Shown here: in pieces, positions 13,961-63,926 of the stretch
How the letters are laid out: the number at the start of each line of letters is the position of its first letter
How positions within the stretch are numbered: the first letter of the stretch is position 1
The notes under the pieces: model-generated
The model's input: only the letters and a program-made list of their open reading frames with translations
Told to the model about the DNA's origin: nothing
Database searches by the model: none
Translations under genes and position numbers: made by a program
Source of the DNA: Hyphomicrobiales bacterium
GTDB taxonomy: Bacteria; Pseudomonadota; Alphaproteobacteria; Rhizobiales; Rhizobiaceae
DNA: 64,000 nt
Direction of reading: 5' to 3'
Assembly (NCBI GenBank): GCA_900473915.1
Contig: UCNG01000003.1
Coordinates: 122,023-186,022 of the forward strand

Positions 13961-14031
13961 CTGGGTAAAAATATTCCACGAATGGCGTATTGAGGAAGAA
14001 TGCGCTTTCGGCTATCCCGGTAAGTGGGCCA

Positions 14032-14069
14032 CGTCTCCCCAACGAGACGCGTGCTATCTGAGAGGATAG
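14032..14069 (+). promoter_or_regulatory. Structured serC leader (serC RNA motif candidate)
   Basis: Two adjacent hairpins lie directly before serC: CGTCTC/GAGACG (14032-14049, loop CCCAAC) and CTATC/GATAG (14054-14069, loop TGAGAG). The AGAGGA ribosome site lies partly in the loop and partly in the 3' arm of the second hairpin, 10 bases before the start codon, so folding could govern translation. A conserved 'serC' RNA motif upstream of serC-serA is known in Alphaproteobacteria; this element fits in position and size, but I cannot align it here. Confidence 0.6.
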
Positions 14070-14076
14070 AAACAAC

Positions 14077-27110: not shown

Positions 27111-27536
27111 ATGAGTGAATCGTACAAGAAACCCGATTATGAACAGGAACTGCGCCAGGCAGGTGTCCGCATCACGCGGCCGCGCCGGATCATCCTGAAC
27201 ATATTGACCGAAACGGAAGATCACCCCGACGCGCTGGAGATTTTTCGCCGGGCGGTGGAGATCGATGACAGCATTTCGCTGTCGACCGTCTATCGCACGA
27301 TGAAGCTTCTGGAAGAGCGCGGCGCTATCCACCGCCACGCCTTTGCCGGAGGGCCGTCGCGTTTTGAACAGGCGAGCGGCGCGCATCACGACCATATCAT
27401 CGACATGGATTCCGGCGATGTGGTGGAATTTCGCTCCGATAAGATCGAAAAACTGCAGGAAGAAATCGCCCGGTCGCTCGGTTACGAGATCGTGCATCAC
27501 CGGCTCGAACTTTATTGCAAAAAAATTCAAAACTGA
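27111..27536 (+). CDS. fur: Fur-family metal regulator (Fur/Mur type)
   Basis: A metal-responsive repressor; in many Hyphomicrobiales the Fur orthologue senses manganese and is called Mur. The 141-residue product has the Fur winged helix ([30 protein letters not shown]) and metal-site histidines in [18 protein letters not shown] and [10 protein letters not shown]. The CXXC pairs of zinc-structured Fur proteins are missing, as usual in this group. A Zur or Irr identity seems less likely because the heme-binding HxH/GIH pattern of Irr is not seen. The start at 27111 follows an obvious operator. Confidence 0.88.
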
Positions 27537-27537
27537 C

Positions 27538-27562
27538 GGAACCAAGTTTCGTCTGCTGCGTT
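27538..27562 (+). promoter_or_regulatory. EcfG-type promoter for the small-RNA candidate
   Basis: GGAAC (27538-27542), 16 bases, CGTT (27559-27562): an exact match to the general-stress sigma factor consensus. It starts 2 bp after the fur stop and points away from any protein gene. Confidence 0.7.
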
Positions 27563-27568
27563 TAGCGC

Positions 27569-27746
27569 CCATGAAGGTCGTGACCCCGCCCCCACAACGC
27601 GGCCTTCACAGTTCGCCTCAACCTCCCCGCACGAGGCGAGCGGCGAGAATGCCGCGCTGATGTCAGCATCAAGCAGCAGGCGTTCCGCAAATTCAGAGCA
27701 AGCCGCTGTGGTTCAGGCTGATCGCCGGACCATGGCGGCTTTTTTC
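27569..27746 (+). ncRNA. Candidate EcfG-controlled small RNA with C-rich hairpin loops
   Basis: No protein gene fits here, but the strand reads as a complete sRNA unit: a stress promoter, then hairpin 1 (27572-27608, 11-bp stem with G-U pairs, 15-base loop ACCCCGCCCCCACAA), hairpin 2 (27613-27639, 7-bp stem TCGCCTC/GAGGCGA, loop AACCTCCCCGCAC), hairpin 3 (27640-27655, GCGGC/GCCGC) and a strong terminator. The C-rich loops CCCCGCCCCC and CCTCCCC are complementary to Shine-Dalgarno sequences, as in many mRNA-binding sRNAs. Caulobacter GsrN, a sigma-T dependent sRNA with a C-rich loop, is a functional analogue. The 5' end is inferred from promoter spacing. Length is about 178 nt. Confidence 0.7.
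27700..27745 (+). terminator. Intrinsic terminator of the small-RNA candidate
   Basis: AAGCCGCTGTGG pairs with CCATGGCGGCTT (12 bp, two G-U pairs) over an 18-base loop, ending in six T. It is over 160 bp past fur and points away from the convergent kinase gene. Confidence 0.8.
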
Positions 27747-27763: not shown

Positions 27764-28774
27764 TCAGGCGTCGAACTGCTCTGTCGGGATGATGAGGGAA
27801 TAAATAGCGCCGGTTCCATCGATGCGATAATCGGCATGGCCGTTGACGGAGGCGGGAACGATGCGCTGCAGCACGGCGCTGCCAAAGCGCGGATCGTGCT
27901 CGAAAACCTCGGGCATTGCCGGATTGGTTTCTTCCCAGTGGAATTCCAGCCTGTCATCGCCGCTGGCCACATGCGTGACCCTGGCGGAAATCCTCACCCG
28001 GCCATAGGGTATGGACAGGCCGCCGAAGGAGGTGGCGTTCACTACCAGCTCGTGCAGCGCGAGGCCGACATGCAGCGCCGCGCCGGGGAAAAGATAGGGG
28101 TTGTCTCCCTCGATGCTCACGCGTTCGTCGGTAACGTCGATATATTTCTCGACCTGCGAATGCACGAGATCGCGAAACAACGCGCCGCGCCAGTTGGAAT
28201 CGGTCACCAGATCCTGCGAATAGGACAGCGACTGGATGCGTCCGCGAAATTTCAGCAGGAAATCATCGATGGAGTCGGTGAAGCGCGCGGTCTGGCTGGC
28301 GATGCTCTGCACGATGGCAAGCAGGTTCTTGGAGCGATGGCTCACTTCGCGCAAGAGCGTCTTCAGCACCTGTTCGCGCCGCTTCAACTCGCTGATTTCG
28401 ATGGCCGTGGTGACGAGGCCCAGAATATTGCCCTCGTCGTCGCGGTCGCAATCGACGTGAAATTCGATCCAGCGCAGCTTGTCGCCGTCATTGATGGCGA
28501 TTTCCACATTCTGCGCTTCGCCCGTGGCCAGCGCCGCTTGCTTGGCGCTGTCGAGCTTGTGCAGGGCGGCGGAAAAGATGAAATCGCAGTCGCTTCCGCC
28601 GACTTTCCACTTTTCCTGCCAGTAGAGCGGGATATTTTCCCCCCATGAATAGAGGAGATCGGGCCGCTGATAGAGAACGCAGACATTGCTGTTGCGCACG
28701 GCCCGCAACAGCGCCCGCAAACGGGCTGCGTCCGGTTCGGTTTCTTGCAGGTTGAATTTTGCGCCAGCCGCCAT
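27764..28774 (-). CDS. HWE-family sensor histidine kinase with PAS domain
   Basis: A soluble 336-residue kinase with no membrane segment. Residues 20-130 form a PAS-like sensor ending RDDEGNILGLVTTAIEISELK. The kinase core has the phospho-histidine in LREVSHRSKNLLAIVQSIAS, the N box LALHELVVNA, and the diagnostic HWE feature in EFHWEETNPAMPEV. HWE/HisKA_2 kinases commonly feed the PhyR general stress pathway, and phyR lies less than 2 kb away, so it is a good candidate activator. No transmitter-linked receiver is present. Confidence 0.88.
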   Translation of the reverse strand: MAAGAKFNLQETEPDAARLRALLRAVRNSNVCVLYQRPDLLYSWGENIPLYWQEKWKVGGSDCDFIFSAALHKLDSAKQAALATGEAQNVEIAINDGDKLRWIEFHVDCDRDDEGNILGLVTTAIEISELKRREQVLKTLLREVSHRSKNLLAIVQSIASQTARFTDSIDDFLLKFRGRIQSLSYSQDLVTDSNWRGALFRDLVHSQVEKYIDVTDERVSIEGDNPYLFPGAALHVGLALHELVVNATSFGGLSIPYGRVRISARVTHVASGDDRLEFHWEETNPAMPEVFEHDPRFGSAVLQRIVPASVNGHADYRIDGTGAIYSLIIPTEQFDA

Positions 28775-29062: not shown

Positions 29063-29227
29063 TTATGCCTTGCGGATCGCCGAGGCGATGAGCGAAATCA
29101 CCAGCAGGGCAAGGAACACGAAGAATAGAATCTGCGCTATGCCAGCCGACGCACCGGCGATGCCGCCGAACCCGAGCGCACCTGCCACAAGTGCTACCAC
29201 AAGAAATACGAGCGCATAATAAAGCAT
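29063..29227 (-). CDS. DUF1328 / UPF0391 small membrane protein
   Basis: A 54-residue hydrophobic protein with the family pattern [20 protein letters not shown] then [17 protein letters not shown] and two membrane helices, ending SAIRKA. Members are widespread small envelope proteins often induced by stress; their biochemical role is unknown. The ATG at 29227 is preceded by AGGAGA; the frame is open further upstream but the family start is clear. An exact EcfG-type promoter lies 32 bp upstream. Confidence 0.88.
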
Positions 29228-29258
29228 GTTCGGTCTCCTCTTTATTGTGTGCAAGAAT

Positions 29259-29284
29259 AACGGGATCAAGACCGTATTTGTTCC
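29259..29284 (-). promoter_or_regulatory. EcfG-type promoter upstream of the DUF1328 gene
   Basis: On the minus strand GGAAC (29284-29280), 17 bases, CGTT (29262-29259). It points to the DUF1328 start at 29227. Confidence 0.65.
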
Positions 29285-29418: not shown

Positions 29419-29460
29419 GCACGCAAAACCGTTTCACAGTTTTGCTCGGAAATGCTCTAG
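29419..29460. repeat. RIME-like repeat end
   Basis: CGCACGCAAAACCGTTTCAC then AGTTTTGCTCGGAAATGCTCTAG. Its last bases form the phyR stop codon. Confidence 0.65.
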
Positions 29461-30251
29461 GCCGCGACCTGCGAGGCTTCCTCGAAAAAGAGCGCCTGGC
29501 TGATCAGGGCCTTCACCATGTCGGGATTGAACGGCTTGGTGACGAGGAAGGTCGGCTCGGGGCGCTCGCCCGTCAGCAGCCGTTCCGGGAAGGCGGTGAT
29601 GAAAATGACGGGTATGGTGTCATTTTGCAGGATTTCGTTCACCGCATCGATGCCCGAGCTTCCATCGGCAAGCTGGATATCAGCCAGCACCATGCGCGGC
29701 TTTTCCTGCTTGTAGAGTGCCAGCGCCTCGTCCCTGGTGCGCGCGATGCCCACCACTTCGTGGCCAAGGCTTTCCACCATCTGCTCGATATCCATCGCGA
29801 TCAGCGGCTCGTCCTCGATAATCATGATGCGCGTTGCCACCTGGCGCGAGATTTCGGCCGATGCGACCGAGAGAACGCGGCTCAGTTCAGCGTCGTCCAG
29901 TTCGAGAATTTCGGCGGCTTCCCGGTCGGAAAAGCCTTCCACCGCCACAAGCAGGAACGCTTGTCGCGGCAAGGGGGCGATATTGGAAAGGTTTCTTGCC
30001 GCACGCTGTTCCCATGCAAAATCCGATGCCGGTTCCGGCACGCGGACCGAGGCCGTCTTGTAGAGATCGCAGAAAAGGCGATAGAGCCCGATCCGGTCGG
30101 ATGAAGCGTCCGGAAATATGCTCACATCGGCAATCAGGGCTTCGAGGGCAGCCGCCACATAGGCGTCCCCGGACGATTGCGAGCCGGTAAGGGCGCGGGA
30201 AAAACGACGAAGATAGGGAAGATGCGGCGCGATACGCGTCGATAACGTCAT
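29457..30251 (-). CDS. phyR: PhyR, general stress response anti-anti-sigma response regulator
   Basis: The central switch of the alphaproteobacterial general stress response. The N-terminal sigma-like domain (about residues 1-125, with LYKTASVRVP and REAAEILELDDAELSRVLS) mimics EcfG. When the C-terminal receiver (about 135-264, phospho-acceptor Asp in VLADIQLADG) is phosphorylated, PhyR binds NepR and frees EcfG. The start at 30251 has GAGGAG upstream and gives 264 residues, the usual length; a longer frame to 30344 lacks support. It is divergent from nepR-ecfG with an EcfG promoter between them. Confidence 0.95.
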   Translation of the reverse strand: MTLSTRIAPHLPYLRRFSRALTGSQSSGDAYVAAALEALIADVSIFPDASSDRIGLYRLFCDLYKTASVRVPEPASDFAWEQRAARNLSNIAPLPRQAFLLVAVEGFSDREAAEILELDDAELSRVLSVASAEISRQVATRIMIIEDEPLIAMDIEQMVESLGHEVVGIARTRDEALALYKQEKPRMVLADIQLADGSSGIDAVNEILQNDTIPVIFITAFPERLLTGERPEPTFLVTKPFNPDMVKALISQALFFEEASQVAA

Positions 30252-30257
30252 GGTAAT

Positions 30258-30283
30258 GGAACTCCTCAACTGCCGCTTTCGTT
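30258..30283 (+). promoter_or_regulatory. Second EcfG-like promoter pointing toward nepR (tentative)
   Basis: GGAAC (30258-30262), 17 bases, CGTT (30280-30283) on the plus strand, 205 bp before nepR inside the phyR leader. It could be a distal nepR promoter or coincidence. Confidence 0.35.
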
Positions 30284-30356
30284 CATTTATGCATTTCGGG
30301 CGGACCGAAACCGGCCCTCTCCACCCATGCCTTGAGCGCAGCATTATGGTACTCTA

Positions 30357-30381
30357 AACGGGACGTTTGGAAAAAAGTTCC
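30357..30381 (-). promoter_or_regulatory. EcfG-type promoter of phyR
   Basis: On the minus strand GGAAC (30381-30377), 16 bases, CGTT (30360-30357). It lies about 105 bp upstream of the phyR start and implies positive feedback. Confidence 0.75.
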
Positions 30382-30487: not shown

Positions 30488-30715
30488 ATGGCAGAAAAAG
30501 AAAACCTTCACATGAACGGAGCCGGGGTCAGGTCACCCCGCCGCGTTCAGAAGGATGTATTGGGACCAAATTGTGAAGTCGGATTGAAACTGAAGGCACT
30601 GTACGCCTCGATACAGGACGAGACGATCCCGGATCGCTTCCTCGATCTTCTTGAAAAACTCGATCAGGCTGAACAGGAGAGTATGCGTGAACACAGCACC
30701 CGGTCCGTCGGTTGA
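30488..30715 (+). CDS. nepR: NepR anti-sigma factor
   Basis: Small anti-sigma factor that sequesters EcfG until phosphorylated PhyR captures it. The 75-residue product has a disordered start and the NepR core LKALYASIQDETIPDRFLDL followed by LLEKLDQ, which contacts EcfG and PhyR. It is divergent from phyR and overlaps ecfG by 29 bp, so the two are translationally coupled. Confidence 0.93.
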   Translation: MAEKENLHMNGAGVRSPRRVQKDVLGPNCEVGLKLKALYASIQDETIPDRFLDLLEKLDQAEQESMREHSTRSVG

Positions 30716-31259
30716 AAGCAACGCGCAGTTCAAGCGGGAACTTCTGTCCTCGCTGCCGAGCTTGCGCGCCTTTGCGGTGTCGCTGATCGGCCAGCATGAC
30801 AAGGCGGACGATCTCGTCCAGGATACGATCATGAAAGCGTGGGCCAAGCAGGAGTCCTTCGAGATGGGGACCAATATGAAAGCATGGCTCTTCACCATCC
30901 TGCGCAATGAATTCTACACGCAGATGCGCAAGCGCGGCCGCGAGGTGCAGGACACCGACGGCGTGTTCAGCGAACAGCTCGCCGTGCATCCCTCGCAATA
31001 TGGCACGCTCGACTTGCAGGATTTCCGTGCCGCGCTGGAGCAGTTGCCTGACGATCAGCGCGAGGCGATCATTCTGATCGGCGCATCGGGCTTTGCCTAT
31101 GAGGAAGCTGCGGAAATCTGCGGCTGTGCGGTCGGCACAATCAAGAGCCGTGTCAGCCGCGCCCGCACGCGCTTGCAGGAAATTCTCAAGATCGAGGGCG
31201 AAAGCGATTACGGTCCCGATGCCGATTCATCGCGTGCGACCTTGCGAAGTTTTGCGTAA
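30687..31259 (+). CDS. ecfG: EcfG general stress sigma factor
   Basis: ECF sigma factor that transcribes the general stress regulon from GGAAC-N16/17-CGTT promoters. The 190-residue product has region 2 (HDKADDLVQDTIMKAW, with MKAWLFTILRNEF) and region 4 (LPDDQREAIILIGASGFAYE with IKSRVSRAR). I prefer the GTG at 30687, which has AGGAGA upstream and lies within the end of nepR; an ATG at 30651 overlaps nepR further and lacks a ribosome site. It is sometimes annotated rpoE1. Confidence 0.93.
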   Translation: MNTAPGPSVESNAQFKRELLSSLPSLRAFAVSLIGQHDKADDLVQDTIMKAWAKQESFEMGTNMKAWLFTILRNEFYTQMRKRGREVQDTDGVFSEQLAVHPSQYGTLDLQDFRAALEQLPDDQREAIILIGASGFAYEEAAEICGCAVGTIKSRVSRARTRLQEILKIEGESDYGPDADSSRATLRSFA

Positions 31260-37479: not shown

Positions 37480-37504
37480 AACGAGGGGAAACGTATTCAG
37501 TTCC
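37480..37504 (-). promoter_or_regulatory. EcfG-type promoter upstream of the PRC-barrel gene
   Basis: On the minus strand GGAAC (37504-37500), 16 bases, CGTT (37483-37480), 68 bp before the start codon. Confidence 0.65.
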
Positions 37505-46365: not shown

Positions 46366-46385
46366 GACGGGGCGGGGGATAAGTC

Positions 46386-48125
46386 ATGCGGGGTTTTGTA
46401 TCGCGTTTTCTGCGGGCGCGGGGCGGCAATCTGGCGACGATGGCGGCGCTGGTCTCTCCGCTGTTCCTGGCGGTGGCGGCATTTTGCGTGGACACGAGTT
46501 CACTGTTTCTGGAGCGGCGCCAGTTGCAGAACATGGCCGATCTTGCGGCCGTCGCCGGTGCTTCCTCTCTTTCGCAGGCCGATGATGCGGTGCTGCGGCA
46601 ATTGCGGGCAAATGGCGTCGATCCGGTGCTGATGAGCGGCAGCTACGACCCGTCCGTTGTCGACGGAAAGACCGACGACAAAACGCGGGTCTGGGTGGAG
46701 AAGGGCAACTATTTTCCCGACAAGAACCGCGCGGTGGAAAACCGTTTCGTGGCGGGCGGTGCAAACCCGGATGCGGTTCGCGTTCGGCTGGCGCGCCCCG
46801 GCAATCTCTATTTCGGCCAGTCCTTCATCGACCGGCCCGCGCTCGGCGCAACCGGCATGGCCGCGACGAAGGCAGAGGCGGCATTTTCGATCGGTTCGCG
46901 ATTGTTGAGCCTGAACACCGACCAGAGCGTGCTGAATGGCCTTCTGGGTGGGCTTCTGGGAACCTCCCTCAACCTGAAGCTTGTTGACTACAATGCCCTG
47001 GCTGCGACCGATATCAACCTTCTCGGCTTTCTGGACAAGCTTGCTCCCAAAGTAGGGCTGACGGCTGGTACCTATGAGCAGTTGTTGAATACGGATGTTT
47101 CAGTCGGCATGTTGGCGACTGTGCTGGCCGAGGTGGTGACGAACAATCCGACAGCCAAAGCAGCACTCGGTATTCTGGGCAAGGATGCGGCAGCCCTTGC
47201 TGCGAAACTGCCGGTGGGAAAATTGCTCGGGCTTGGGTCGTTGGCAAACGCTTCGATAGGTTCCGGTTCGGGATACAACATAACCGCCAATGTTCTGCAG
47301 ATGGTTTCGGCTGCTGTCATGATTGGAGGCAAGCACCAAGTCGACATTGGGTCGGGATTGAATGTCCCGGGATTACTAGGTGTTACCTTGGAAGTGCTGG
47401 TGGGAGAACCGCCGCTGAACACTCCTTTTTTCCGTGTTGGCGCGGCAGGTTCTTTCGTTCGTACCGCGCAGGTTCGATTGAAACTTGGTATCCGTGTGGG
47501 TGGCGAGTCGGGCAGCCCGTTGATCGGGGTTAAACTTCTTGATCTCAATCTTCCCCTTGCAATCGATATTGCCTCGGCCGAGGGAGAACTCAAGAGCATA
47601 AGCTGTCCAGCAGGCCCGACGAGCGCCAATGTCGCGATTGCAGCGAAACCCGGTATTGCCGGTATCTATCTCGGAGAAATCAGCTCCTTTCAAGACTTGA
47701 ACCGGAAGCCCACCGTGAGCCGAACGAAGATAGCAAATGCAAAGCTATATCTCTTGGGCGTTCCCATTGATCTTATCGATCTTGAAGCGAAAGCTGAAGT
47801 GAAACTGGGGGAAAAGACGACTTCCCTGTCATTCATTTACAGCGATATACAGAATAAAAAGATCAAGACCGCTTATTCAAGTAATCTGGTTTCCTCTCTG
47901 TCGAGTTCTCTTCTGAAGAACATGGAGATAGATCTTAATCTGCTGGGAATAATCAAGCTGCCGCTGGGTGACGTGGTGGGACTGGTGGGGGTCTTGCTGA
48001 CCCCGGTAGCGCCTCTGATCGACAACCTTGTTTTCGGAGTTCTCGACTTGCTCGGTGTAAAACTGGGGGAGGCCGACGTTCAGGTCACCGGTGTCCTCTG
48101 CCAGCGCGCCGTTCTTACACAGTGA
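46386..48125 (+). CDS. TadG-like large pilus/adhesion-associated protein
   Basis: A 579-residue protein whose N terminus (RGGNLATMAALVSPLFLAVA, then FCVDTSSLFLERRQLQNMAD) is the TadG/TadE-type membrane anchor seen in Tad pilus minor proteins. The long C-terminal region (about 130-579) has alternating hydrophobic stretches, many Leu-Gly motifs (NGLLGGLLGTSLNLKLVD) and two late cysteines; it does not match a domain I know. The gene follows the TadE-like gene by 20 bp. The rest of the Tad machinery must be encoded elsewhere. Confidence 0.72.
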   Translation: MRGFVSRFLRARGGNLATMAALVSPLFLAVAAFCVDTSSLFLERRQLQNMADLAAVAGASSLSQADDAVLRQLRANGVDPVLMSGSYDPSVVDGKTDDKTRVWVEKGNYFPDKNRAVENRFVAGGANPDAVRVRLARPGNLYFGQSFIDRPALGATGMAATKAEAAFSIGSRLLSLNTDQSVLNGLLGGLLGTSLNLKLVDYNALAATDINLLGFLDKLAPKVGLTAGTYEQLLNTDVSVGMLATVLAEVVTNNPTAKAALGILGKDAAALAAKLPVGKLLGLGSLANASIGSGSGYNITANVLQMVSAAVMIGGKHQVDIGSGLNVPGLLGVTLEVLVGEPPLNTPFFRVGAAGSFVRTAQVRLKLGIRVGGESGSPLIGVKLLDLNLPLAIDIASAEGELKSISCPAGPTSANVAIAAKPGIAGIYLGEISSFQDLNRKPTVSRTKIANAKLYLLGVPIDLIDLEAKAEVKLGEKTTSLSFIYSDIQNKKIKTAYSSNLVSSLSSSLLKNMEIDLNLLGIIKLPLGDVVGLVGVLLTPVAPLIDNLVFGVLDLLGVKLGEADVQVTGVLCQRAVLTQ

Positions 48126-61529: not shown

Positions 61530-62981
61530 CTAGCGCTTGTAGGCGCTGCAAATGTATTTGGTTTCGAGATATTCCTCGATGCCGTATTTCGAACCCTCAC
61601 GGCCAAGGCCCGACTGCTTCACGCCGCCAAACGGCGCGACTTCGTTGGAAATGAGGCCGGTATTGTGCCCGACCATGCCGTATTCCAGCCCTTCGCTGAC
61701 ACGAATCGCGCGGCTGAAATTCTCCGTATAGAAATAAGCGGCCAGACCGAAGATCGTGTCATTGGCCATGGCAATGACTTCTTCTTCCGTATCGAAGGCA
61801 AAGAGCGGAGCCAGCGGGCCAAAAGTTTCTTCCCTGGCCACGATCATGTCGGTGGTTACGCCCGTCAGCACGCCGGGTTCAAAGAACAGGCCGCCCAGTT
61901 CCTTGCCGCCGGTGATGAGCTTCGCACCCTTGGAAACGGCATCGTCAATATGCGCCTTGACCTTGGTAATGGCTTTCGGCTCGATCATCGGGCCGATGAC
62001 GACGCCCGGTTCGGTGCCATTGCCGACCTTGAGCTCCTTGACCTTGGCCGCGAGCTTTTCGGCGAACTTGTCGTAAATCCCGCGCTGCACATAGATGCGG
62101 TTGGCGCAGACACAGGTCTGGCCCGCATTGCGGTATTTGGAAATCATGGCGCCATCAACGGCGGCATCGAGATCGGCGTCATCAAAGACGATGAACGGCG
62201 CATTGCCGCCCAGTTCCAGCGAAATGCGCTTGATGGTCGGGGCACACTGCGCCATCAGCAGGCGGCCAACTTCCGTCGACCCGGTGAAGGAGAGCTTGCG
62301 CACCGTTTCATTGCTCGTCAGCTCGGCGCCGATTTCGCGCGCCTTGCCGGTTACGATCTGCAGGACGCCTGCCGGGATGCCGGCCTTTTCAGCGAGAACA
62401 CCGAGCGCCAGCGCCGTCAGCGGCGTGAGGTCTGCGGGGCGGACGATCATGGTGCAACCGGCGGCGAGGGCAGGTGCAGCCTTGCGGGTGATCATCGCAG
62501 CCGGGAAGTTCCATGGCGTGATTGCTGCCGTCACGCCAACCGGCTGGCGGATGACGGTCAGGCGCTGCCCGGCCTGCGGGGCAGGAATGGTGTCGCCATA
62601 GACGCGCTTTGCTTCTTCGGCGAACCACTCGATGAAGGATGCCGCATAGAGAACCTCGCCGCGTGCCTCAGCAAGCGGCTTGCCCTGTTCGGATGTCATG
62701 ATAAGAGCAATGTCGTCGGCATTGGCAACGATGAGATCGAACCATTTGCGCAAGGTAGCCGCGCGCTCCTTGGCGGTCTTGGCGGCCCATGCCGGAAAAG
62801 CCTTGGCGGAGGCGTCGATGGCTTCCTTGATGGTCGCGACAGAAAGGGAGGGAACCGTGCCGATGACCGAACCGTCTGCCGGGTTGGTCACGTCGATCTT
62901 GGCGCCGTCCGTGGCGTCTATCCAGCGCCCGTCAACAAGGCATTGCGATTTGAGCAGCGAAGGGTCTTTCAAAGCGAGCAT
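61530..62981 (-). CDS. gabD: Succinate-semialdehyde dehydrogenase
   Basis: Oxidises succinate semialdehyde to succinate with NAD(P), the last step of GABA use. The 483-residue product has the catalytic ELGGNAPFIVFDDADLDAAV with the active Glu and the active Cys in AGQTCVCANRIYVQRG; FTGSTEVGRLL binds the cofactor. This subgroup (GabD/DavD) may also oxidise glutarate semialdehyde. A divergent IclR regulator may control it. A strong terminator follows. Confidence 0.92.
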   Translation of the reverse strand: MLALKDPSLLKSQCLVDGRWIDATDGAKIDVTNPADGSVIGTVPSLSVATIKEAIDASAKAFPAWAAKTAKERAATLRKWFDLIVANADDIALIMTSEQGKPLAEARGEVLYAASFIEWFAEEAKRVYGDTIPAPQAGQRLTVIRQPVGVTAAITPWNFPAAMITRKAAPALAAGCTMIVRPADLTPLTALALGVLAEKAGIPAGVLQIVTGKAREIGAELTSNETVRKLSFTGSTEVGRLLMAQCAPTIKRISLELGGNAPFIVFDDADLDAAVDGAMISKYRNAGQTCVCANRIYVQRGIYDKFAEKLAAKVKELKVGNGTEPGVVIGPMIEPKAITKVKAHIDDAVSKGAKLITGGKELGGLFFEPGVLTGVTTDMIVAREETFGPLAPLFAFDTEEEVIAMANDTIFGLAAYFYTENFSRAIRVSEGLEYGMVGHNTGLISNEVAPFGGVKQSGLGREGSKYGIEEYLETKYICSAYKR

Positions 62982-63110: not shown

Positions 63111-63926
63111 ATGACGAAAACGGCGAGCGACGAAGAGAGTTCCCAGAAACTGGTTCCGGCAGTCATGCGCGCGGCGCAAATTCTCGATCAGATCGCGAAA
63201 TGCGCGCAGGAAGGCGGCAAGGGGACTGGGGACGGACTCAAGCTTTCCGATCTTGCGCGCCGGACCGGCTTGCCGAAAAGCAGTGTGCACGGACTTTGCC
63301 AGACGCTGGTGCATCTCAAGCTTTTAAAGCTCAACAGCGACGGAAGCTTCACCATGGGATCGCAATCGGTGCGCTGGGCCAATGTGTTCATGGCAGGCAG
63401 CGACATTGTCGATGCGTTTCATGAAGCTGTAGCGGAGGCCGATGGGCTGGGCGCGCACACATTGACGCTTTCGCATCTGGAAGGTCCGGATGTCATTTAT
63501 CTTTCCTGCCGCAACTCGACGGCGCCGCTCGGAATCACATTTCGCATCGGCATGCGGGTTCCGGCTGTCTTTACCGCGACCGGCAAGGCCATGCTGGCCG
63601 CGATGTCCCCGCAGGAACTGGCCCGTCATCTGCCGTCCGAATGGCCGGAACTGATCACCCCGGCCAGCGCGCCTTCATTCAAGGTTCTGGAAGCGGAAAT
63701 GGCAGAAGTGAAGGCAAGAGGCTATTCACTGGATAATGGCCAGTTGCGCGAAGGCATGTTCTGCATAGGCGCTGCGATCTGCGACCGGCCGTTTCATCCA
63801 ACCGCCGGTATTGCCCTGTCGATGATGGCGGCGGAGGCTCGCCCCGACATTATAGAAGACATGGGAAGGCGCGTGCGGGCACTTGCCAATGATGTCGCGG
63901 ACCGTATGGGATGGCTCTCTGCGTGA
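63111..63926 (+). CDS. IclR-family transcriptional regulator
   Basis: A 271-residue regulator with an N-terminal winged helix (LKLSDLARRTGLPKSSVHGL, then CQTLVHLKLLKLNSDGSFTM) and the IclR effector domain (TFRIGMRVPAVFTATGKAML and RGYSLDNGQLREGMFCIGAA). IclR proteins typically repress or activate nearby catabolic genes; the divergent gabD is the obvious target. The 129-bp intergenic region includes a TTCGAA palindrome. The window ends 74 bp after the stop with no further gene start. Confidence 0.9.
   Translation: MTKTASDEESSQKLVPAVMRAAQILDQIAKCAQEGGKGTGDGLKLSDLARRTGLPKSSVHGLCQTLVHLKLLKLNSDGSFTMGSQSVRWANVFMAGSDIVDAFHEAVAEADGLGAHTLTLSHLEGPDVIYLSCRNSTAPLGITFRIGMRVPAVFTATGKAMLAAMSPQELARHLPSEWPELITPASAPSFKVLEAEMAEVKARGYSLDNGQLREGMFCIGAAICDRPFHPTAGIALSMMAAEARPDIIEDMGRRVRALANDVADRMGWLSA

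What the first reader, a model, noticed from the sequence alone, without database searches (positions are those of the whole stretch)
27538..27746. Unannotated small RNA with C-rich loops behind an exact EcfG promoter
An exact GGAAC-N16-CGTT promoter starts 2 bp after the fur stop and points into 200 bp with no protein gene. The sequence folds into an 11-bp hairpin with loop ACCCCGCCCCCACAA, a second hairpin with loop AACCTCCCCGCAC, a third hairpin, and a 12-bp intrinsic terminator ending in six T. C-rich loops of this kind pair with ribosome-binding sites. It sits in the same cluster as the HWE kinase, phyR, nepR and ecfG, like a Caulobacter GsrN analogue. This is the most promising new element in the window.
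Basis: partly seen in the sequence, partly recalled or inferred. Interest (0 to 1): 0.88.

Follow-up and report, generated by a model that had tools for sequence, protein, structure and literature searches.

The report
Stress-sigma-driven small RNA beside mur
Next to the master switch of the bacterial general stress response sits a short non-coding RNA with two C-rich loops, kept for its folded shape in most Brucella/Ochrobactrum relatives and matched by look-alike RNAs at the same spot in a number of other rhizobia; it is very probably a stress-induced regulator of the already known GsrN kind, with targets still unknown.

Summary
An exact GGAAC-N16-CGTT box (27538-27562) begins 2 nt after the mur ("fur") stop and precedes a 178-nt RNA of four hairpins ending in six T (z = -6.7). 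Of 30 mur loci of the Brucella/Ochrobactrum/Falsochrobactrum group, 26 keep the box. In 23 aligned copies 15 of 43 pairs show compensatory changes (0 of 500 shuffles); the C-rich loop cores are 88-91% identical. A model of the RNA scores strongly in 31 of 35 genus genomes.
Added here: in 20 other Rhizobiaceae stress loci, an EcfG box plus C-rich-loop RNA faces the 3' end of phyK/phyR in 10 (strict rule), against 0 of 506 other tiles. The closest Rfam family is ar7, a separate gene with another promoter.
It works like Caulobacter GsrN, but GsrN's target katG is missing from 27 of 35 genus genomes. It is probably not new to print: a B. abortus gsrN homologue was predicted in 2018, and the RpoE1-dependent sRNA Bsr6 has been blotted; neither could be tied to this locus. 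Targets are unproven.

The parts
27111..27536 (+). mur (Fur-family metal regulator), upstream gene
   Evidence: Pfam FUR 5e-40; orthologous place named mur in B. ovis (PMC12354254, passages)
27538..27562 (+). EcfG-type promoter GGAAC-N16-CGTT
   Evidence: kept in 26 of 30 mur loci
27569..27746 (+). small RNA (5' end near 27569 inferred from the box, 3' end from the T run)
27572..27608 (+). hairpin 1, 11 bp, C-rich loop ACCCCGCCCCCACAA
   Evidence: 6 of 9 consensus pairs with two-sided changes
27611..27641 (+). hairpin 2, 9 bp, C-rich loop AACCTCCCCGCAC
   Evidence: 5 of 8 consensus pairs with two-sided changes
27643..27688 (+). hairpin 3: the most conserved stem of the RNA (96% identity), variable tip, enlarged in three Falsochrobactrum copies
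27700..27745 (+). intrinsic terminator: hairpin and six T
27764..28774 (-). phyK, HWE histidine kinase, convergent neighbour
   Evidence: Pfam HWE_HK 9e-26
29457..30344 (-). phyR (start uncertain)
   Evidence: Pfam PhyR_sigma2, PhyR_sigma-like, Response_reg
30488..30715 (+). nepR
   Evidence: Pfam NepR
30687..31259 (+). ecfG (start uncertain)
46369..46388 (+). candidate target site: G tract GGGGCGGGGG just before the ATG of a TadG-like gene (46386-48125)
   Evidence: post hoc

Best explanation
A trans-acting small RNA of the alphaproteobacterial general stress response. Stress frees EcfG (PhyR sequesters NepR); EcfG transcribes the RNA from its own promoter directly behind mur; the transcript stops at the terminator before phyK. 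Two long hairpins hold C-rich loops (cores around CCCGCCCC and CUCCCC) open, and these pair by short G-C duplexes with G-rich stretches in 5' leaders or ribosome-binding sites of several mRNAs, changing translation or stability. Shown here: promoter sequence, predicted fold, covariation, loop conservation, lack of a kept frame, recurrence at the same place of the stress locus. Established elsewhere: the PhyR-NepR-EcfG switch, and EcfG-type control and C-loop pairing for GsrN. Inferred: transcription in this organism, trans action, targets, sign of regulation.
For: Box kept in 26 of 30 mur loci, spacer free to vary. 15 of 43 pairs with two-sided changes; 98.7% of cells paired against 33-50% when the 3' partners are slid. 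Loop cores 88% and 91% identical, stems of hairpins 1 and 2 84% and 78%. Frame from ATG 27571 not kept: the same 29 codons in 7 of 23 rows, all close relatives; in the rest other lengths, a stop codon or no start. Box + C-loop RNA facing the 3' end of phyK/phyR in 10 of 20 other Rhizobiaceae loci (strict) or 13 of 20 (relaxed), against 0 and 4 of 506 tiles and 0 of 20 on the opposite strand. In print: GsrN acts through a C-rich 5' loop on katG, and a B. abortus homologue was predicted at the GSR locus (PMC5869019, passages and section 14); Bsr6 needs RpoE1 and has an RpoE1 box (PMC12772402, passages).
Against: No transcript data for this organism in my tools. Lacking in four of 30 group loci (L021, L024, L027, L039), three of which keep mur, phyK and phyR, so it is dispensable. 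Apart from the RNA gene itself, exact 11-nt complements of loop 1 and loop 2 number 6 and 5 in 8 genomes, against 16 and 6 for the reversed control, so no single long-duplex target stands out. Loop 1 drifts (CCCCGCCCCC in the window, AAGCCCCGC in L030), and the stem of hairpin 3 (96%) and the terminator stem (92%) are more conserved than the loops, which a loop-only mechanism does not explain. 7 of 20 other loci show no such RNA even by the relaxed rule.
Confidence: 0.74

Rival explanations
1. It is a second, EcfG-driven relative of the ar7 (Smr7C) sRNA: similar loops put under a stress sigma factor, competing for or adding to ar7 targets.
For: Distant hits of the model R1 in Rhizobiaceae (best E 2.4e-8 outside the genus) are ar7 in 9 of 9 loci that I gave to Rfam (78-127 bits, cut-off 60). 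ar7 is a separate gene in 34 of 35 genus genomes and has C-rich loops in the same order. A review table lists RpoD and RpoH1/2 promoters for S. meliloti smrC7 (PMC7143759, passages).
Against: The ar7 model scores the window RNA only 21.4 bits, cut-off 60. Of 30 Brucella-group ar7 loci fetched (of 34), none has an EcfG box and 26 have a CTTGA-type one. Some R1 hits (L110, L111, L115) do not look like ar7, so R1's reach is not specific. C-rich loops on GC-rich stems can arise twice.
Confidence: 0.3
2. Its main job is local: the RNA or read-through past the terminator acts on the convergent phyK mRNA or as the 3' UTR of mur.
For: Fixed convergent position next to phyK, or phyR where phyK is not adjacent. 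Among 62 window ORFs the phyK 5' region ranks 5th for loop 1 pairing, -24.7 kcal/mol.
Against: The RNA ends before the phyK stop codon and does not overlap the coding region. Own promoter and terminator, covarying stems and kept loops point to a free RNA. About 4% of random 110-nt stretches of the window pair at -24 or better.
Confidence: 0.1
3. The transcript encodes a small leaderless peptide from ATG 27571.
For: ATG lies 2 nt after the expected start and is kept in 20 of 23 aligned rows; a 29-codon frame is shared by 7 of 23 rows.
Against: Outside those 7 close relatives the frame is not kept: indels not in threes, 24-59 codons, a stop codon in L031, no start in L030. Substitutions follow base pairing. 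The ATG is at the foot of stem 1.
Confidence: 0.03

Closest known systems
GsrN of Caulobacter (and the GsrN-like RNAs predicted in R. etli, S. meliloti, A. radiobacter, B. abortus; PMC5869019)
   Same: EcfG-type promoter, place at the GSR locus, exposed C-rich loop in the 5' hairpin; the paper names B. abortus among predicted homologues
   Different: The authors' own BLASTn found no GsrN hits outside Caulobacteraceae; katG, the proven target, is absent from 27 of 35 genus genomes; here two C-rich hairpins plus a third hairpin
Bsr6 of B. abortus (PMC12772402)
   Same: RpoE1 (EcfG)-dependent by Northern blot, RpoE1 box in its promoter; role unknown; deletion without effect on mouse spleen counts
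   Different: Its place in the genome is not in the passages that I could read, so identity with this locus is likely but unverified
Bmsr1 of B. melitensis (table in review PMC9751625)
   Same: 121 nt; the orientation of the three genes fits mur-sRNA-phyK
   Different: That its flanking tags BME_RS01840/01835 are mur and phyK is my rough interpolation of tag numbers and may be off by several genes; the reported deletion phenotype (attenuation) differs from that of Bsr6 (none)
ar7 / Smr7C (RF02342)
   Same: Hairpins with C-rich loops then a terminator; best Rfam match at the RNA, below cut-off
   Different: 21.4 bits against a cut-off of 60; other locus, other promoter; both genes coexist in most genus genomes

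Membership tests
GsrN-like RNA of the general stress response | EcfG-type box at the promoter | tested here: met
   Exact box, kept in 26 of 30 loci
GsrN-like RNA of the general stress response | Lies near ecfG-nepR-phyR | tested here: met
   About 3 kb from ecfG; tblastn and Pfam on neighbours
GsrN-like RNA of the general stress response | Exposed C-rich loop in a 5' hairpin | tested here: met
   Predicted fold and covariation; no probing data
GsrN-like RNA of the general stress response | EcfG-dependent transcript | not testable with these tools
   Bsr6 in print needs RpoE1; identity with this locus unverified
GsrN proper (Caulobacteraceae) | Sequence or structure homology to Caulobacter GsrN | tested here: inconclusive
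   R1 in 190 sampled genomes of the class: nearest genome plus one weak hit, E 6e-5, not followed up; the GsrN sequence itself was not compared
GsrN proper (Caulobacteraceae) | Activates katG by pairing with its leader | tested here: not met
   Peroxidase PF00141 in 8 of 35 genus genomes; 23 of 31 strong-R1 genomes lack it, so katG cannot be the general target; pairing with the 8 katG leaders was not tested
GsrN proper (Caulobacteraceae) | Hfq-dependent, processed to a stable 5' isoform | not testable with these tools
   Needs RNA work
ar7 (RF02342) | Score over the Rfam gathering cut-off of 60 bits | tested here: not met
   21.4 bits on the window
ar7 (RF02342) | RpoD/RpoH-type promoter (CTTGAA...) | tested here: not met
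   EcfG box instead; of 30 true ar7 loci 26 have CTTGA and none an EcfG box. That CTTGAA...CCAAAT is RpoD/RpoH-type is recalled; the S. meliloti entry is from PMC7143759
Small protein gene | Reading frame kept among relatives | tested here: not met
   Same frame in 7 of 23 rows only

The most novel reading that the evidence does not exclude
The RNA is an old, vertically inherited part of the Rhizobiaceae general-stress locus (RNA, phyK, phyR, nepR, ecfG in a fixed order), and it is the EcfG-driven sister of the housekeeping/heat-shock RNA ar7: two kinds of sigma factor deliver similar C-rich loops to an overlapping set of G-rich ribosome-binding sites, so that the set of targets, not one mRNA such as katG, is what evolution keeps.
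Probability: 0.28. Interest if true: 0.65.

Novelty: new member of a known kind. Interest (0 to 1): 0.45.

Why it matters
It gives the post-transcriptional arm of the general stress response in the Brucella/Ochrobactrum clade a precise candidate gene, structure and promoter, and supports with comparative data and controls the 2018 proposal that such RNAs are common at alphaproteobacterial stress loci. It also argues that the one proven GsrN target, katG, is not what keeps this RNA, which makes target finding the open question.

Tried and rejected
Rfam at gathering scores: no family at the RNA. Small-protein reading: rejected. Long anti-loop sites as targets (11-nt exact, 8 genomes): 14 and 13 matches, 8 of each being the RNA gene itself, against 16 and 6 for the reversed patterns; whether the few other sites are orthologous was not tested (contexts). 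katG as the general target: mostly absent. GGGGCGGGG-N2-14-ATG in the same kind of sample (8 genomes): 69 matches, 8 of them the RNA gene itself, against 14 for the reversed pattern; 30 sites were fetched and, by eye, few stand at evident gene starts (one pleD-like gene in L308). Two leaders recur in 4 of 8 genomes each, before a membrane-protein gene next to a recJ-like gene and before secA (names by eye, no family search); left as leads. TadG-like gene: second of 62 window ORFs for pairing, the first being the RNA's own antisense; 15 of 17 orthologues pair at -23.0 or better (random 5% level -23.5); the exceptions are L279, from genome G417, which has no R1 hit, and L281, whose anchor is off. 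A regular G tract was matched in 11 of 17, in L270 not at the start. 18 other genus genomes gave no match for the gene, so it is not a general target, and the test is post hoc. R1 on the GSR-locus RNAs of other genera: with default filters on all 20 loci the one hit at the RNA's place is L213 (14.1 bits, E 0.044); with filters off on 5 of them L200 (20.4 bits, E 1.7e-4), L206 (13.0, 0.024), L201 (10.4, 0.13), L215 (8.0, 0.63), L207 (4.2, 7.8) at the place, but elsewhere in these loci hits as good occur (L215:3924, E 6e-4). So homology there rests on place, promoter and layout, not on R1. Placing Bsr6 and Bmsr1 by text search failed. One search was a useless alignment (wrong second reference).

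Full report
What is there. The gene before the RNA is a Fur-family regulator (Pfam FUR); in B. ovis the gene at the 3' side of phyK is called mur, the manganese uptake regulator (PMC12354254, passages). One base after its stop codon stands GGAAC-N16-CGTT (27538-27562). The 178 nt from 27569 fold into four hairpins with z = -6.67: hairpin 1 with loop ACCCCGCCCCCACAA, hairpin 2 with loop AACCTCCCCGCAC, a third hairpin, and a terminator with six T. The next gene, phyK, an HWE kinase, comes from the other side and ends at 27764; phyR, nepR, ecfG and a second HWE-type kinase follow.

Organism. The nearest named locus is B. pseudintermedia, at about 90% identity over 12 kb. The own assembly is not held.

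Conservation. 80 loci with a mur relative were fetched (the best 80 of 102). I took 29 of them, chosen by record title and identity, as the Brucella/Ochrobactrum/Falsochrobactrum/Paenochrobactrum group, and added the window: 30. 26 have the box 1 nt behind the stop (25 CGTT, one CATT), with 25 different spacers among 26 (for all 30; for 29, without L039). The four without it are L021 (B. gallinifaecis), L024 (a MAG), L027 and L039 (Paenochrobactrum); L021, L024 and L039 still have mur, phyK, phyR, nepR and ecfG, while L027 has nepR directly behind mur. On a quick four-gene protein tree L021 lies inside the RNA-bearing group, so at least that loss is separate. The other 51 loci were not counted; in the downstream stretches that I saw I noticed no such RNA behind mur.

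Structure test. 23 of the 26 copies were aligned; the three Falsochrobactrum copies (L028, L029, L033) with an enlarged hairpin 3 were left out. 15 of 43 pairs have two-sided changes, 57 cells against a shuffle mean of 15.9; 0 of 500 shuffles reach any of the five measures. Sliding the partners drops paired cells from 98.7% to 33-50%. MAFFT made the alignment without the structure, but the structure was derived from that alignment. Loop cores are 88% and 91% identical, the stems of hairpins 1 and 2 84% and 78%; the stem of hairpin 3 (96%) and that of the terminator (92%) are more conserved still, so hairpin 3 may have a role that I cannot name. A reading frame from ATG 27571 is the same in 7 of 23 rows and not kept in the rest.

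Distribution. A covariance model R1 of these 23 finds the three left-out Falsochrobactrum copies at 87-114 bits and scores 63 bits or more in 31 of 35 genus genomes (many of these species are also in the training set, so the number is not independent); G397, G411 and G415 have weak hits only, G417 none. In 190 sampled genomes of the class only the nearest genome and one weak hit passed 1e-4, under stricter filters.

Same place in other rhizobia. EcfG was found in 50 of 61 sampled family genomes. I fetched 11-15 kb around it from the 20 best-scoring genomes outside the genus (20 of 48). In 10 of 20 an exact box is followed by an RNA with at least one hairpin loop holding four or more C and at least two C runs, within 1 kb of and facing the 3' end of phyK, or of phyR where phyK is not adjacent, on the strand of nepR-ecfG; with a relaxed box 13 of 20. 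The same regions on the other strand gave 0 of 20; other 1-kb tiles of the same loci gave 0 of 506 (strict) and 4 of 506 (relaxed). An earlier control: of 95 exact boxes in these loci 8 were followed by a C-rich hairpin loop and 6 by two; of 108 scrambled boxes 2 and 0. The criteria were set after first seeing some of these RNAs, so the contrast is stronger than a blind test would give, though the tiles were scored by the same rule. Seven of 20 gave none: L202, L209, L211, L212, L213, L218, L219; L209 and L212 are AT-rich there, while L202 and L213 have C-rich hairpins by eye without a box that fits the rule. R1 gives little help: L200 20.4 bits (E 1.7e-4, filters off), L206 13.0, L213 14.1 (default filters) at the right place, but hits as good occur elsewhere in the same loci.

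ar7. R1's distant hits in the family (57 genomes outside the genus at E <= 0.01) include Rfam ar7: 9 of 9 loci that I gave to Rfam exceed its cut-off; others look alike by eye, and at least L110, L111 and L115 do not. ar7 is a separate gene in 34 of 35 genus genomes. Of 30 such loci fetched, 26 have a CTTGA-type promoter and none an EcfG box, in line with the RpoD/RpoH1/2 entry for S. meliloti smrC7 in a review table (PMC7143759, passages). The window RNA scores 21.4 bits with the ar7 model against a cut-off of 60. So it is not an ar7; common origin remains possible.

Targets. GsrN of Caulobacter activates katG through its C-rich 5' loop (PMC5869019, passages and section 14). Here PF00141 peroxidases occur in 8 of 35 genus genomes, all of them RNA-bearing; 23 of the 31 RNA-bearing genomes have none. 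Exact 11-nt complements of either loop, the RNA gene apart, are no commoner than the reversed pattern (6 against 16, 5 against 6). In the window the best partner of loop 1 outside the RNA's own antisense is the start region of a TadG-like gene at 46386 (-30.6 kcal/mol; 0.17% of 2979 random 110-nt stretches pair at -30 or better). A G-rich stretch before or just after the start codon recurs in its orthologues (15 of 17 pair at -23.0 or better), and the orthologue from the one of these genomes without an R1 hit, G417, lacks it; but 18 genus genomes have no such gene by this search. These are leads, not results; energies ignore accessibility.

Prior print. Tien et al. 2018 predicted a gsrN homologue in B. 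abortus from GSR-dependent expression, nearness to the GSR locus and an EcfG site (Figure 9 legend; figure not seen; authors' names recalled). Bsr6 of B. abortus requires RpoE1 by Northern blot and carries an RpoE1 box; its deletion left mouse spleen colonisation unchanged (PMC12772402, passages). Bmsr1 in the table of PMC9751625 has a fitting gene orientation (passages); that its flanking tags are mur and phyK is only a rough interpolation of mine. BMEI0375 is named a ferric uptake regulation protein (PMC10582347, one passage). None of these could be tied to mur-phyK from the text held. Searches that bear on novelty. I saw no covariation analysis and no family-wide position analysis of this RNA in what these returned; most papers were seen as listings only.

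Verdict. Very probably a real, EcfG-driven, GsrN-like small RNA; a new member of a known kind for this organism, probably already glimpsed in B. abortus. 

Noticed in passing
window 29259-29284 (-) and 30357-30381 (-): Further exact EcfG boxes before a DUF1328 small membrane protein gene (29063-29269) and before phyR.
   Followed up: partly
window 30258-30283 (+), 37480-37504 (-), 62194-62217 (-), 63119-63143 (-): Other matches to GGAAC-N15-18-CGTT (7 in all, about 2 expected by chance); genes behind them not examined.
   Followed up: no
window 14022-14074 (+): serC leader (RF00517), 63.5 bits, over the gathering score.
   Followed up: no
window 27643-27688 (+): The stem of hairpin 3 is the most conserved part of the RNA (96% identity over 23 copies, 7 of 14 pairs never vary), more so than the C-rich loops; no explanation.
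   Followed up: no
window 46369-46388 (+): G tract GGGGCGGGGG at the start of a TadG-like gene; a G-rich stretch before or just after the start codon recurs in most orthologues and is missing in the one from a genome without the RNA.
   Followed up: partly
L028, L029, L033: Falsochrobactrum copies carry an enlarged tip of hairpin 3; the whole RNA is about 40-95 nt longer than in the other copies.
   Followed up: partly
L292, L298, L289, L311 near the middle: A G-rich leader (GAGGGGCGGGGGC) in 4 of 8 genomes, before a membrane-protein gene next to a recJ-like gene; a similar one before secA in 4 of 8 (L287 and L304 fetched; gene names by eye).
   Followed up: partly
G017:C4:287657-287796: A second, weak ar7-model match (34.2 bits) that is neither the ar7 gene nor the EcfG-driven RNA.
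   Followed up: no
L027: nepR-ecfG follows mur directly; phyK, phyR and the RNA are not in this 12-kb locus.
   Followed up: no
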